Below, piece by piece: positions 25,754 through 28,561 of a stretch of 53,584 nt of DNA. The stretch's first letter is position 1. Each line of letters opens with the position of its first letter. The position numbers were made by a program, and so were the translations under genes. The notes beneath the pieces are model-generated. The model made no database searches, was not told the DNA's origin, and saw only the letters and a program-made list of their open reading frames with translations. Source of the DNA: an uncultured Oscillospiraceae bacterium (GTDB taxonomy: Bacteria > Bacillota > Clostridia > Oscillospirales > Oscillospiraceae); assembly GCA_944385705.1 (NCBI GenBank), contig CALWYF010000009.1, forward strand, positions 1 through 53,584, given 5' to 3'.

Positions 25754-25948
25754 TCAGTTATCCAAAGTAAAGATGTCCTCCACGTGAAGCCCCAGGAGCC
25801 GGGCTATCTTCATGGCCAGTTCCAGACTGGGGTCGTACTTGTCGTTCTCAATGGCAATGATAGTCTGGCGGCTCACTCCCAGTTCCTTTGCCATATCCTC
25901 CTGGCGCAGTCCCGCCGCCTTGCGCAGCTGCTTCACCCTGTTTTTCAT
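25754..25948 (-). CDS. XRE-family HTH regulator, module 1
   Basis: A 64-residue protein that is just a Cro/CI-type helix-turn-helix: QEDMAKELGVSRQTIIAIEN forms the helices, followed by DKYDPSLELAMKIARLLG. It is about half identical to the regulator at 27921, so the two are paralogues. The ATG overlaps the TGA of the membrane gene upstream (TGATG), so the pair is translationally coupled. The promoter of the pair carries two palindromic operators like those of module 2, which makes autoregulation likely. Confidence 0.9.
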   Translation of the reverse strand: MKNRVKQLRKAAGLRQEDMAKELGVSRQTIIAIENDKYDPSLELAMKIARLLGLHVEDIFTLDN

Positions 25949-26277
25949 CAGCTCATCACCGCTATATAGGTGCCCACAGCCAGGATAAGGACACTTATAA
26001 ACAGAGCGGCCAGAATGGTTTGCAGCAGCCGGTTGGGTTCATGGTATTCCTCATCCCCGGAAGTCATCTTCTGCTTTATGCCCATATAGGTAAAGGACTG
26101 CACACATACTCCCAGGCACATTATAAGAGTAGGCACAGGCTGATAGGGCGCCCCCTTAGCCAGGGTCTGCCAGCAGTTATACAGCACCCAGACTATCAGG
26201 GCTATGAGCATCGCCCTGAAGCCCCACTCCTCCGAGCGCAGCTGGATGTTCCTGTCCATCTCATCCATTCTCTTCAT
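25948..26277 (-). CDS. Small membrane protein paired with XRE regulator, module 1
   Basis: A 109-residue protein with four apparent hydrophobic stretches at about 19-38, 45-65 (VPTLIMCLGVCVQSFTYMG) and 85-107 (TILAALFISVLILAVGTY), the first being long. It resembles the DUF6773-type proteins that often sit next to small XRE regulators in Clostridia; I hold that name loosely. GGAGGG lies 8 bases before the ATG. It is the first gene of the module, with the XRE gene coupled downstream. Function is unknown; it could sense or relay an envelope signal to the regulator. Confidence 0.75.
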   Translation of the reverse strand: MKRMDEMDRNIQLRSEEWGFRAMLIALIVWVLYNCWQTLAKGAPYQPVPTLIMCLGVCVQSFTYMGIKQKMTSGDEEYHEPNRLLQTILAALFISVLILAVGTYIAVMS

Positions 26278-26303
26278 TTATGTTTCCCTCCTTGATTTTT
26301 AAA

Positions 26304-26371
26304 AATGTTAAGCGTTCTTTACATTTTTCATTATACAGCTTTTTCTCAAAATGTCAAGAACTCTTAACATT
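26304..26371 (-). promoter_or_regulatory. Promoter with paired XRE operators, module 1
   Basis: On the minus strand: TTGACA (26352-26357), 16 bases, TATAAT (26330-26335). Two palindromes flank it. The upstream one TGTTAAGAGTTCTTGACA (26352-26369) contains the -35 as its right arm; the downstream one TGTAAAGAACGCTTAACA is at 26306-26323. Their centres are 46 bp apart. The same layout and near-identical sequence recur at 27834-27897, so these are most likely binding sites of the encoded XRE regulators. Confidence 0.8.
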
Positions 26372-26380
26372 TTTATATAT

Positions 26381-26423
26381 AAATATTCCGGCTCTGCTCA
26401 GACAGCGCAGAGCCGGAATATTT
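26381..26423. terminator. Bidirectional hairpin terminator
   Basis: A 17-bp perfect stem (26381-26397 with 26407-26423, containing ATTCCGGCTCTGC) with a 9-base loop and A/T-rich arms on both ends. It terminates the minus-strand gene at 26495 and separates it from the module 1 promoter. Confidence 0.8.
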
Positions 26424-26494
26424 ACACTGAGGAAAAATTGGGAAAGCCGTATTTTATTTTAAAATTTGGATATTCAGAAAATCTGCCCGGCCGC

Positions 26495-26698
26495 CTATTG
26501 TCTGTTCTGCAAGCTCTCCTGTTTAAGCCGTTCCTTTGCCTCTTCAACGCTTTCCCCATCCTTTGTGAGATAGCGCTCCACGAAACTGTCTTCCACCTTT
26601 TTGTATCCGTCCACCACGGTGTCTTCAATTTTTCCAAAAGCCGCGGTTACCTTCTCTGCAATTTTTTCATTTGCTTTTACAAGTTTGGATTTTGCCAT
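26495..26698 (-). CDS. Small charged protein with tandem YKKxED-type repeats
   Basis: A 67-residue, Lys/Glu-rich helical protein: MAKSKLVKANEKIAEKV, then FGKIEDTVVDGYKKVEDSFV, in which the motif (Y/F)xKIEDxxVxGYKKVED repeats, and a C-terminal TKDGESVEEAKERLKQE. Proteins of this pattern are common in Firmicutes but have no assigned function. GAGGG stands 10 bases before the ATG at 26698; a TTG at 26704 is an alternative. It follows the membrane gene at 26756 by 57 bases and may be controlled by the same TetR regulator. Confidence 0.75.
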   Translation of the reverse strand: MAKSKLVKANEKIAEKVTAAFGKIEDTVVDGYKKVEDSFVERYLTKDGESVEEAKERLKQESLQNRQ

Positions 26699-26755
26699 TG
26701 TCAATCATCCCTCTTTATAGCGTTTTTAATGCCCGGCAGTTCTGTCGGTCAGCGG

Positions 26756-27127
26756 TCAATCCTTAATACCTTTGGTCAGGGGGATCAGGGAGAGCAGAAC
26801 CACCACTCCTCCAAGCCCGATCACTATTCCCACAGCCAGCTTTCCCCACACCATGGTAAAGCACATTCCAAGGCCCAGGGCCAGGGCACCGGCAATTCCC
26901 ACAACTACGGTGAGGATCGCCTTTCCGGATATGCGTATGGGTTCCTTATGCTCCATTTTACGCCATACTCCAACTGTCACCAGGCCCAGCAGGACGCCGG
27001 CACAGCCCAGAGCTACCCCCGGTCCGAAAGAGTTCCACTCCCTTATCAGCGCCATGCACATACCCAGGGCAAACAAAACTCCGCTGACTGTCCCCAGAAG
27101 CATGGCAATATAACTGCTTTTTTTCAC
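26756..27127 (-). CDS. Four-helix membrane protein, likely target of the divergent TetR
   Basis: This 123-residue protein consists mostly of four membrane segments (about 6-27, 36-56, 70-91 and 94-114) with a short basic loop (RKMEHKEPIRISGK). GGAGG is 8 bases before a GTG at 27127, the start I chose; the frame extends to a GTG at 27136 that would overlap the ribosome site. It is divergent from a TetR gene, with overlapping promoters, so repression by that regulator is likely. A small multidrug-type or accessory membrane protein is possible, but no family signature is clear. Confidence 0.7.
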   Translation of the reverse strand: MKKSSYIAMLLGTVSGVLFALGMCMALIREWNSFGPGVALGCAGVLLGLVTVGVWRKMEHKEPIRISGKAILTVVVGIAGALALGLGMCFTMVWGKLAVGIVIGLGGVVVLLSLIPLTKGIKD

Positions 27128-27149
27128 ATCAAGCACCTCCGTTTTTTGT

Positions 27150-27239
27150 ATTAAAACAACTGTTGTTGTTTTAATCTGTACGTAGTATAATGCCGTTAAA
27201 GCAGCAAAACAATCATCAATTTCTCAACAAGTGTTGAGA
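27150..27239. promoter_or_regulatory. Divergent TetR control region with overlapping promoters and two palindromes
   Basis: Plus-strand promoter: TTGTTG (27163-27168), 17 bases, TATAAT (27186-27191). Minus-strand promoter: TTGTTT (27207-27212), 17 bases, TATACT (27184-27189). The two -10 elements overlap. One palindrome, ATTAAAACAAC-TGTT-GTTGTTTTAAT (27150-27175), covers the plus -35; another, TCTCAACA-AG-TGTTGAGA (27222-27239), lies just before the TetR ribosome site. Both contain CAAC/GTTG half-sites. This is the expected layout of a TetR autorepressor and divergent target. Confidence 0.75.
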
Positions 27240-27253
27240 TAAAGGAGATTATT

Positions 27254-27802
27254 ATGAATACGCCAAACAACCGGAGGAAAAAGAAATCCATAGAGACCAT
27301 AGAGAAGGTATTCATAGACCTGCTTCAAACCCGGCAGCTCAATGAGATCAGCGTGTCGGATATCTGCAAGCTGGCCGGTCTGAACCGCACGACCTTCTAC
27401 GCCAACTATACGGACATATTTGCCTTGGCCGACTCCATACGGGATAAGCTGGAGGGCAGTCTGGCTGAACTGTACAGAGAGGAGATTACAGAGGGATTCA
27501 ACAGTCACGACTATTTAAAGCTGTTCCGGCATATTAAGGATAACCAGATTTTTTACAGGACCTATTTCAAACTGGGTTATGACGATAATTATAAAATTGT
27601 AAGCTACGACACCGAGCTGGCAAAGCAGCATTTTCAAAATCGCTTTATCAATTACCACATGGAGTTTTTCAAAAGCGGCCTGACAAAAATCATTAAGATG
27701 TGGTTGAACGGAGGCTGCCAGGAAAGCCCTGAGGAAATGTTCGAGATAATCAGAAGCGAGTACAGGGGACGGGAAGCCTTCTTTTCCGGCAGCATGGAAT
27801 AG
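27254..27802 (+). CDS. TetR/AcrR-family transcriptional regulator
   Basis: This 182-residue protein has an N-terminal TetR HTH (about 12-58): IEKVFIDLLQTRQLNEISVSDICKLAGLNRTTFYANY, with the typical recognition helix LNRTTFYANYTD (quoted here in two overlapping parts). The C-terminal ligand domain (about 65-182) is all-helical with aromatic residues (FYRTYFKLGYDDNY), matching the TetR_C_7-like regulators found in Firmicutes; the ligand is unknown. AAAGGAG lies 7 bases before the ATG. It is transcribed divergently from the membrane gene at 26756. Confidence 0.9.
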   Translation: MNTPNNRRKKKSIETIEKVFIDLLQTRQLNEISVSDICKLAGLNRTTFYANYTDIFALADSIRDKLEGSLAELYREEITEGFNSHDYLKLFRHIKDNQIFYRTYFKLGYDDNYKIVSYDTELAKQHFQNRFINYHMEFFKSGLTKIIKMWLNGGCQESPEEMFEIIRSEYRGREAFFSGSME

Positions 27803-27833
27803 CTGGGGAGCCAATTAAATCCGTCGTAAAAAA

Positions 27834-27897
27834 TGTAAAGGAACCTTGACAACGCCGCTGTCATATGCTACACTGCATATGTAAAGGAAACTTGTCA
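27834..27897 (+). promoter_or_regulatory. Promoter with paired XRE operators, module 2
   Basis: TTGACA (27846-27851), 17 bases, TACACT (27869-27874). Operator 1 is TGTAAAGGAACCTTGACA (27834-27851), with the -35 as its right arm; operator 2 is TGTAAAGGAAACTTGTCA (27880-27897), 23 bases before the XRE start. Centres are 46 bp apart, as in module 1. Operator 2 lies over the start of transcription, a repressing position. Confidence 0.8.
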
Positions 27898-27920
27898 GAA
27901 GTTTTGAAAGGGGCACAAGT

Positions 27921-28124
27921 ATGGAAAACCGTGTGGAGGAACTGCGCAAATCCCTGGGCTTGAATCAGGAGGAATTTGCCAAAGCCATCAGGGTCTCCCG
28001 CCAGACCGTCAGCTCCATTGAGAACGGAAAATACAACCCCTCTCTGGAGCTGGCCTTTACCATAGCCGACTATTTCAAACTGAGCATTGAAGAAATTTTC
28101 ATCCATGAGAGGAGAGAGTCATGA
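27921..28124 (+). CDS. XRE-family HTH regulator, module 2
   Basis: A 67-residue Cro/CI-type HTH: QEEFAKAIRVSRQTVSSIEN, then GKYNPSLELAFTIADYF. It is a paralogue of the regulator at 25754. GAAAGGGG lies upstream of the ATG. It overlaps the next gene by four bases (ATGA). Here the regulator comes first and the membrane gene second, the opposite order to module 1. The double operator in its promoter points to negative autoregulation, possibly with cross-talk to module 1. Confidence 0.9.
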   Translation: MENRVEELRKSLGLNQEEFAKAIRVSRQTVSSIENGKYNPSLELAFTIADYFKLSIEEIFIHERRES

Positions 28125-28561
28125 AAAAAACTCAGCTTATCAGCGGCATAATCTATACTCTTCTTGGCCTTGCCCTGCTGCTTACAGCCATTTTTACCAA
28201 CACCGAAATCGGCATGCTCTACGGCCTCGGCGGCGCTCTGACAGGCCCGGGGCTGGTCATGATGGGGAAATATTTTTATTGGAGCCGTCCACAAAACCGG
28301 CAGCGCTATGAGGAGCGTCTGGACAACGAGCGGATAGAAATGAACGACGAACTGAAGCAAAAGCTCCGTGACCGCTCCGGCCGCTATGCCTATGTGCTGG
28401 GTATGGTGACGGTGAGCCTGTCCATTTTTGTTATCGGCATACTGGAAGACCTCGGCCTCATTGGGGACAGCCGCCCAATGATTTTGTATCTGGCAGCTTA
28501 CCTGATATTCCAGGTCATTGCCGGGATAGCGATCTTCAACAGGCTTTTGAAGAAGTATTGA
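28121..28561 (+). CDS. Membrane protein paired with XRE regulator, module 2
   Basis: A 146-residue protein with four membrane segments: about 6-25, 31-50, 86-106 and 118-139. Between segments 2 and 3 is a cytosolic charged stretch (NRQRYEERLDNERIEMNDELKQKLRD), probably helical. Its ATG overlaps the TGA of the XRE gene, so translation is coupled. No enzyme motif is visible. The combination of a tiny XRE protein and a coupled DUF-type membrane protein is common in Clostridia, but the signal is unknown. Confidence 0.75.
   Translation: MKKTQLISGIIYTLLGLALLLTAIFTNTEIGMLYGLGGALTGPGLVMMGKYFYWSRPQNRQRYEERLDNERIEMNDELKQKLRDRSGRYAYVLGMVTVSLSIFVIGILEDLGLIGDSRPMILYLAAYLIFQVIAGIAIFNRLLKKY

What the first reader, a model, noticed from the sequence alone, without database searches (positions are those of the whole stretch)
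25754..28561. Two XRE/membrane modules with identical double-operator geometry
Both promoters contain a pair of TGTWAAG..CTTGACA palindromes, the upstream one embedding the -35, with centres exactly 46 bp apart although the -35/-10 spacers differ (16 and 17). The regulators are paralogous and each is coupled to a membrane protein, but in opposite gene order. This suggests a shared regulatory circuit with cross-regulation and possibly DNA looping or cooperative binding, which I have not seen described.
Basis: partly seen in the sequence, partly recalled or inferred. Interest (0 to 1): 0.75.

Follow-up and report, generated by a model that had tools for sequence, protein, structure and literature searches.

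The report
Self-regulating switches with paired DNA docks
Two neighbouring gene pairs, each a tiny DNA-binding protein plus a small membrane protein, carry the same double binding site in their own promoters, and this layout recurs in many related gene pairs elsewhere, which makes these little-studied switches testable.

Summary
Both promoters hold two 18-bp palindromes (TGTNAAG-N4-CTTNACA), centres 46 bp apart; the upstream one contains the -35 box, the downstream one begins 5-6 bp after the -10 box. The own genome has two more such modules, at 46 and 47 bp. Of 80 loci elsewhere encoding the same CylR2-like XRE type, 66 carry a pair, against 0.02 expected from shuffles. Spacing is mostly 43-48 bp, with 28-29 in six Actinobacteria/Bacilli loci, 38-40 in three Proteobacteria and 21 in three archaea-labelled loci; one clade has a third, middle site. 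Operator bases vary with the regulator's recognition helix, so each XRE probably binds its own promoter. A, B and their two paralogues each fit best the operator class of their own XRE type: insulated autoregulation is likelier than cross-regulation. Looping is unsupported; spacing mostly follows promoter geometry, with a weak hint that the distance itself is held. Best reading: an autorepressing XRE whose operators bracket the promoter, probably antagonised by its co-transcribed membrane partner, like CylR1/CylR2. Repression and the partner's role are inferred.

The parts
25754..25948 (-). XRE regulator A (64 aa, CylR2-like, recognition helix SRQTIIAIENDKYDP)
   Evidence: HTH_3 E=1e-18; recognition-helix class A
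25948..26277 (-). membrane partner A (109 aa, first gene of the operon, DEM at residues 5-7)
   Evidence: weak DUF6442 hit, E=0.0022, below the gathering cut-off; model with three long helices, mean pLDDT 83.3
26352..26369 (-). operator A-O1, TGTTAAGAGTTCTTGACA
26352..26357 (-). -35 box TTGACA inside A-O1
26330..26335 (-). -10 box TATAAT of module A (spacer 16)
26306..26323 (-). operator A-O2, TGTAAAGAACGCTTAACA, starting 6 bp after the -10 box
27834..27851 (+). operator B-O1, TGTAAAGGAACCTTGACA
27846..27851 (+). -35 box TTGACA inside B-O1
27869..27874 (+). -10 box TACACT of module B (spacer 17), preceded by TG as in an extended -10
27880..27897 (+). operator B-O2, TGTAAAGGAAACTTGTCA, starting 5 bp after the -10 box
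27921..28124 (+). XRE regulator B (67 aa, CylR2-like, recognition helix SRQTVSSIENGKYNP)
   Evidence: HTH_3 E=3.3e-19; PDB 9k3w 1e-12 and CylR2 1utx 3.7e-11
28121..28561 (+). membrane partner B (146 aa, start overlaps the XRE stop as ATGA; DE at residues 76-77)
   Evidence: model mean pLDDT 94.2, five helices; DE the only invariant columns in the 36 partners aligned

Best explanation
Each module is an autoregulated two-gene switch. The XRE protein binds, as a dimer, two copies of its own operator, one covering the -35 box and one starting 5-6 bp past the -10 box at the transcription start, and so shuts RNA polymerase out of its own operon (direct recognition: indicated by protein-DNA covariation; dimer and repression: inferred from the palindromes and their position). 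The co-transcribed membrane protein, which has a conserved Asp-Glu motif, most likely senses a membrane state and relieves or adjusts repression by binding the XRE (inferred, by analogy with CylR1/CylR2). Paralogues in one genome are kept apart by differing operator bases (inferred). The 46-bp spacing is mainly what this promoter geometry gives.
For: Paired operators in 66 of 80 loci against 0.02 of 80 expected from dinucleotide shuffles. Pattern scan of 150 family genomes: 17 rows, 16 distinct promoters, all 16 in front of an XRE gene, reversed control 0; the next gene is an evident membrane protein gene in 15 of 16 (in L024 it is not). Among 48 non-redundant promoters fetched by protein alone, spacing 40-55 bp, the -35 arm of O1 reads TTGACA in 41 (the consensus itself asks for TTNACA). 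Operator class fits the XRE helix class in 68 of 72 modules left out one at a time; shuffled labels reach at most 45 of 72 in 200 rounds. The residue after RQT[IV] goes with operator base 3: G with TGG (6 of 9 half-sites, 3 modules), T with TGC (5 of 6, 2 modules), S/I/N with TGT (252 of 270); L136, found by operator pattern, has Gly there. An adjacent ORF with at least 2 predicted TM segments in 77 of 80 loci, with DE[RMLFIVKA] in 71 of the 77 (no control set).
Against: No binding, expression or interaction data. The antagonist role of the membrane protein rests on analogy. Fourteen of 80 loci do not reach the pair threshold within 600 bp (some have little upstream DNA held). L124 has a clear pair before an ABC-transporter operon with no adjacent XRE, so regulation may not always be self only. 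L024's XRE is not followed by an evident membrane gene. The covariation partly follows ancestry: the single strongest residue-base link is residue +14, outside the recognition helix. L061 has TGG arms with Ser, against the base-3 rule.
Confidence: 0.72

Rival explanations
1. A shared circuit: both XREs bind both promoters, with looping or cooperative contact fixed by the 46-bp spacing.
For: Same consensus arms and same 46 bp in A, B and C57; spacer/gap compensation nominally significant (Fisher p=0.008 for D 43-48, 0.016 overall, 8 short spacers).
Against: Operator classes differ and fit the own XRE class in all 4 own-genome modules; spacing ranges over 21, 23, 28-29, 32, 38-40, 43-48, 53 and 55 in relatives; Spearman spacer-gap p=0.07; no room for an oligomerisation domain; B-like and C57-like modules occur in a same-genus genome without an A module among its listed matches (G349).
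Confidence: 0.1
2. A toxin-antitoxin-like pair: the XRE is antitoxin and autorepressor, the membrane protein a toxin.
For: Two small overlapping genes; XRE with distant, below-cut-off similarity to antitoxin HTH models; patchy presence: 5 of 12 same-genus genomes, many incomplete; relatives on 696 plasmid records.
Against: No toxin or defence family found for either membrane protein; four paralogous modules in one genome.
Confidence: 0.1
3. The XRE activates as well as represses, like restriction-modification controller proteins that use two operators with opposite effects.
For: Controller proteins are small XRE dimers with paired operators (recalled); PADLOC Control_protein hits, E=2e-07 (A) and 1.1e-06 (B), though HTH_VI, capH and RmrA models score better.
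Against: A consensus -35 (41 of 48) and often TG before the -10 (29 of 48) should need no activator, and O1 covers the -35 itself; no restriction-modification gene recognised by eye among the adjacent ORFs (not searched with families).
Confidence: 0.1

Closest known systems
CylR1/CylR2 of Enterococcus faecalis
   Same: 66-aa HTH regulator of the same sequence family (PDB 1utx, profile E=4.3e-21) with a small membrane protein encoded beside it, predicted to have three TM helices; CylR1 thought to alter DNA binding by CylR2 (passages of PMC3709268 and PMC12304293).
   Different: CylR1/CylR2 control a lanthipeptide operon from overlapping promoters; no lanthipeptide genes recognised by eye in the adjacent ORFs here. 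Homology of partners A and B with CylR1 was not tested. The CylR2 operator paper (PMC517608) is not held, so its operator was not compared.
Bib1R1/Bib1R2 of Bacillus thuringiensis
   Same: Described as similar to CylR1/CylR2, membrane protein plus regulator (passages of PMC11343131).
   Different: Lies in a lanthipeptide gene cluster; sequences not compared here.
PDB 9k3w, 'Transcriptional regulator, PbsX family'
   Same: Closest solved sequence (profile E=2.8e-27).
   Different: No paper naming it found; partner and operator unknown to me.
Phage lambda OR1-OR2-OR3 (recalled)
   Same: Cro/CI-type HTH; three operators about 23-24 bp apart resemble most of the triple-site clade here.
   Different: No C-terminal oligomerisation domain; A and B have no middle site.
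Restriction-modification controller (C) proteins (recalled)
   Same: Small XRE dimers that autoregulate through paired operators.
   Different: Operator placement differs as recalled; no restriction-modification genes recognised by eye nearby.

Membership tests
CylR1/CylR2-like regulator pairs | single-domain HTH_3 regulator of about 66 aa related to CylR2 | tested here: met
   HTH_3; CylR2 1utx E=3.7e-11 for B alone, 4.3e-21 for the profile
CylR1/CylR2-like regulator pairs | small multi-spanning membrane protein encoded next to it | tested here: met
   A and B; 77 of 80 relatives by simple hydropathy
CylR1/CylR2-like regulator pairs | regulator binds a palindrome at its promoter | tested here: inconclusive
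   indirect only: operator enrichment and protein-DNA covariation
CylR1/CylR2-like regulator pairs | membrane partner homologous to CylR1 and relays a peptide signal | not tested
   cytolysin genes were not fetched; signal unknown
Lambda-type operator arrays | three operators at 23-24-bp steps | tested here: not met
   absent in A and B; the 59 promoters without a perfect middle arm score there as shuffles do
DUF6442/DUF2178 membrane proteins | Pfam gathering score | tested here: not met
   DUF6442: A 18.7 bits, B 13.6, cut-off 25. Of 36 aligned partners, 11 match DUF2178 at E up to 0.01; window B does not
Type II toxin-antitoxin pair | partner is a growth-inhibiting toxin | not testable with these tools
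   no toxin family found

The most novel reading that the evidence does not exclude
These modules are one ancient, cross-domain class of membrane-coupled one-component switch: a CylR2-like autorepressor reading a paired (in one clade triple) operator whose half-sites double as core promoter boxes, a membrane partner with a DE(R) motif as its sensor and antagonist, and a readable amino-acid-to-base code that keeps paralogues orthogonal in one cell.
Probability: 0.4. Interest if true: 0.72.

Novelty: new variant of a known kind. Interest (0 to 1): 0.55.

Why it matters
A conserved operator rule gives direct predictions: which DNA each regulator binds, which modules are insulated, and which other operons (for example the ABC transporter in L124) may belong to the regulon. 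It also points to a natural set of small, possibly orthogonal repressor/operator pairs.

Tried and rejected
Looping set by helical phase: unsupported (46 bp is 4.4 turns; other lineages use other spacings). Strict compensation between spacer and gap: weak only. Hidden middle operator in A and B: rejected, the promoters without a perfect middle arm score there as shuffled spacers do. L018 as a non-XRE target: rejected, the pair belongs to a divergent XRE module. L117 and L121: weak sites, no XRE found nearby, treated as chance. A first scan missed the XRE of L021; it is intact. A scan for operators with TGG or TGC in the outer arm in 295 order genomes gave only one new locus. Fold comparison of partner B with the PDB: best E 3.1, none meaningful. 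Pfam, NCBIfam, PADLOC and PHROGs gave no named function above cut-off for the membrane partners in the window. Paper searches showed no description of this operator rule in what I saw (listings and a few passages); the library lacks most subscription journals, so absence in print is not shown.
Full report
Observation. Reading the region and scanning it confirms every stated element. Module A on the minus strand has operators at 26369-26352 and 26323-26306; module B on the plus strand has operators at 27834-27851 and 27880-27897. Centres are 46 bp apart in both. The -35 TTGACA is the right arm of the upstream operator in both; the -10 boxes are TATAAT (spacer 16) and TACACT preceded by TG (spacer 17). 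The XREs are 64 and 67 aa, 54% identical, both HTH_3. Gene order is opposite. The genes overlap (1 nt in A, 4 nt in B), which suggests translational coupling.

More than chance. In the 2.26-Mb own genome the pair at 46 bp with up to 3 mismatches occurs at three places (each read on both strands), control 0: A, B and a third copy on contig C57, where a membrane gene precedes the XRE as in A. A fourth XRE on C20 has a 47-bp pair and the gene order of B. A fifth (C2, L009) shows only one recognisable operator. Single sites matching the looser TGTNAA-N6-TTNACA exactly are five, all in these modules; with up to one mismatch there are 57 against 31 in the control.

Recurrence. A half-site-plus-site pattern allowing centre spacings of 32-60 bp in 150 genomes of the family gave 17 rows in 14 genomes, own included, control 0. 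They are 16 distinct promoters, and all 16 lie in front of an XRE gene; L018 first looked like an exception but its pair serves a divergent module. In 15 of 16 the next gene is an evident membrane protein gene; in L024 it resembles (by eye) a pseudouridine synthase. In 199 genomes across the phylum, 13 rows: 3 own, 7 in front of an XRE gene (their membrane genes were not checked), 1 (L124) before an ABC-transporter operon without an adjacent XRE, and 2 weak ones with no XRE found. So most genomes do not have an exact match: 14 of 150 and 11 of 199 do. Of the 14 that miss, four score 18-19 (L073, L075, L085, L108) and ten show no pair at the threshold used; four of those ten (L046, L056, L092, L098) have under 460 bp of upstream DNA. 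The loci include Clostridia, Bacilli, Actinobacteria, Proteobacteria and archaea-labelled MAGs; MAG labels can be wrong. The sample was chosen by XRE similarity, and modules are related by descent, so the counts are not independent events.

Geometry. Spacing is 46 in 27 of the 66, 47 in 7, 44 in 6, 43 in 5, 45 in 2; 28-29 in six (four Actinobacteria, two Bacilli), 38-40 in three (Proteobacteria), 21 in three (archaea-labelled), 55 in three Ruminococcus, and one each of 23, 32, 48, 53. Lineage and spacing are not tightly tied: the Actinobacteria L044, L061 and L080 have 44-46, the Bacilli L079, L083 and L104 have 46, and the proteobacterium L113 has 32. Of 86 promoters with spacing 40-56 bp, 79 are less than 85% identical (7 dropped) and 78 have a clear -10: spacer 17 in 68, gap from -10 to O2 of 5 in 43, D=46 in 44 and 47 in 12. 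Part of this set was fetched by patterns that require CTTGACA; among the 48 fetched by protein alone, 41 have TTGACA in O1, 25 have D=46 and 7 have 47. So 46 is essentially -35 arm + 17 + 6 + 5. For D 43-48, spacers of 15-16 go with gaps of at least 6 in 5 of 8 cases against 10 of 64 for spacer 17 (p=0.008; 0.016 with other spacings), while the rank correlation is not significant (p=0.07); the -10 assignment favours spacer 17 in its scoring. I count this as a weak hint that the -35-to-O2 distance itself is held. Two random promoters share the same D with probability 0.36.

Triple sites. Of 70 promoters with D 43-56, 11 carry a perfect middle left arm 23 bp from O1, merging into the -10 box; the last site follows 23-24 bp further, or 32 bp in three Ruminococcus. 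All 11 have a recognition-helix stretch ending Y[NT]A, against 3 of 58 others whose last residue there is A; L021 is a twelfth of the same kind, not in that count. The other 59 score at the middle position as shuffles do.

Protein-DNA code. Operator base 8 goes with the helix: A most often in the AIE class (A, C57), G in the SSIE class (B), T or C in the SSLE class (C20). Classes were set. Leave-one-out profiles assign 68 of 72 modules to their own class (A 14 of 15, B 9 of 11, L 45 of 46); shuffled labels average 32.2 and reach 45 at most; all four own-genome modules, left out of the profiles, score best with their own class (A 42.8 against 28.8 and 22.0 bits; B 52.7 against 34.5 and 42.1). 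Eleven modules of other helix types were left out. Mutual information over 95 modules is high for residues +5 and +6 against base 8, but the top link is residue +14, outside the helix, so ancestry contributes. Base 3 goes with the residue after RQT[IV]: G with TGG (3 modules), T with TGC (2 modules), with L061 as an exception. L136 was fetched by its operator and has the predicted Gly; this is one case, of the same helix type as C20.

Membrane partners. In 77 of 80 loci an adjacent ORF has at least two predicted TM segments, and 71 of 77 contain DE[RMLFIVKA] (simple hydropathy and regex, no control set). In 36 aligned XRE-first partners (B plus 35 of the 56 candidates, my choice) D76 and E77 of B are the only invariant columns; three candidates lacking the motif (L060, L080, L093) were not in that alignment. 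The AlphaFold model of partner B is confident (mean pLDDT 94.2, pTM 0.66) with five helices, DE lying between helices 3 and 4; no PDB match. Partner A gives three helices at pLDDT 83.3 from 11 sequences. Topology was not tested.

Distribution. The modules are patchy: relatives of XRE A at E up to 1e-10, of any class, in 7 of 20 genomes searched, own included, and in 5 of 12 others of the genus, many incomplete. Five loci from that search were scanned and have pairs, all at 46 bp; L130 has three TGC-type sites and L131 has different palindromes, both by eye. The nearest plasmid relative, on a Pusillibacter faecalis plasmid, has the same pair and a neighbouring gene annotated hypothetical protein.

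Mechanism. Shown: operator placement over the -35 and just after the -10, recurrence, covariation. Inferred: dimer binding, autorepression, insulation in vivo, sensing and relief by the membrane partner. Cross-regulation is disfavoured, looping unsupported.

Literature. Passages of PMC3709268 and PMC12304293 describe CylR1/CylR2, with the mechanism between them unresolved; passages of PMC11343131 describe a similar pair in a lanthipeptide cluster; passages of PMC8960796 compare HTH structures. The other papers were seen in listings only. Lambda and controller-protein comparisons are recalled.

Noticed in passing
window 26756-27136 (-) and 27254-27802 (+): A 126-aa hydrophobic, probably multi-spanning protein divergent from a TetR-type regulator (TetR_C_8) lies between modules A and B: a third regulator/membrane pair in the same stretch.
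   Followed up: no
L124 1490-1557: A clear operator pair (50 bp apart) in front of an ABC-transporter operon with no adjacent XRE: possible regulon target of a distant XRE.
   Followed up: partly
L131: A related XRE (helix SQIERGDYSP) has a different pair of palindromes of the type TGACAAC-N4-GTTGTCA, about 33 bp apart by eye: the paired design may be wider than this operator.
   Followed up: no
G000 contig C2, L009 1032-1306: A fifth XRE/membrane module in the own genome shows only one recognisable operator, TGTAATATATACTTGACA, over its -35.
   Followed up: partly
window 26495-26704 (-): A 69-aa ORF without a family above cut-off between the two modules.
   Followed up: no
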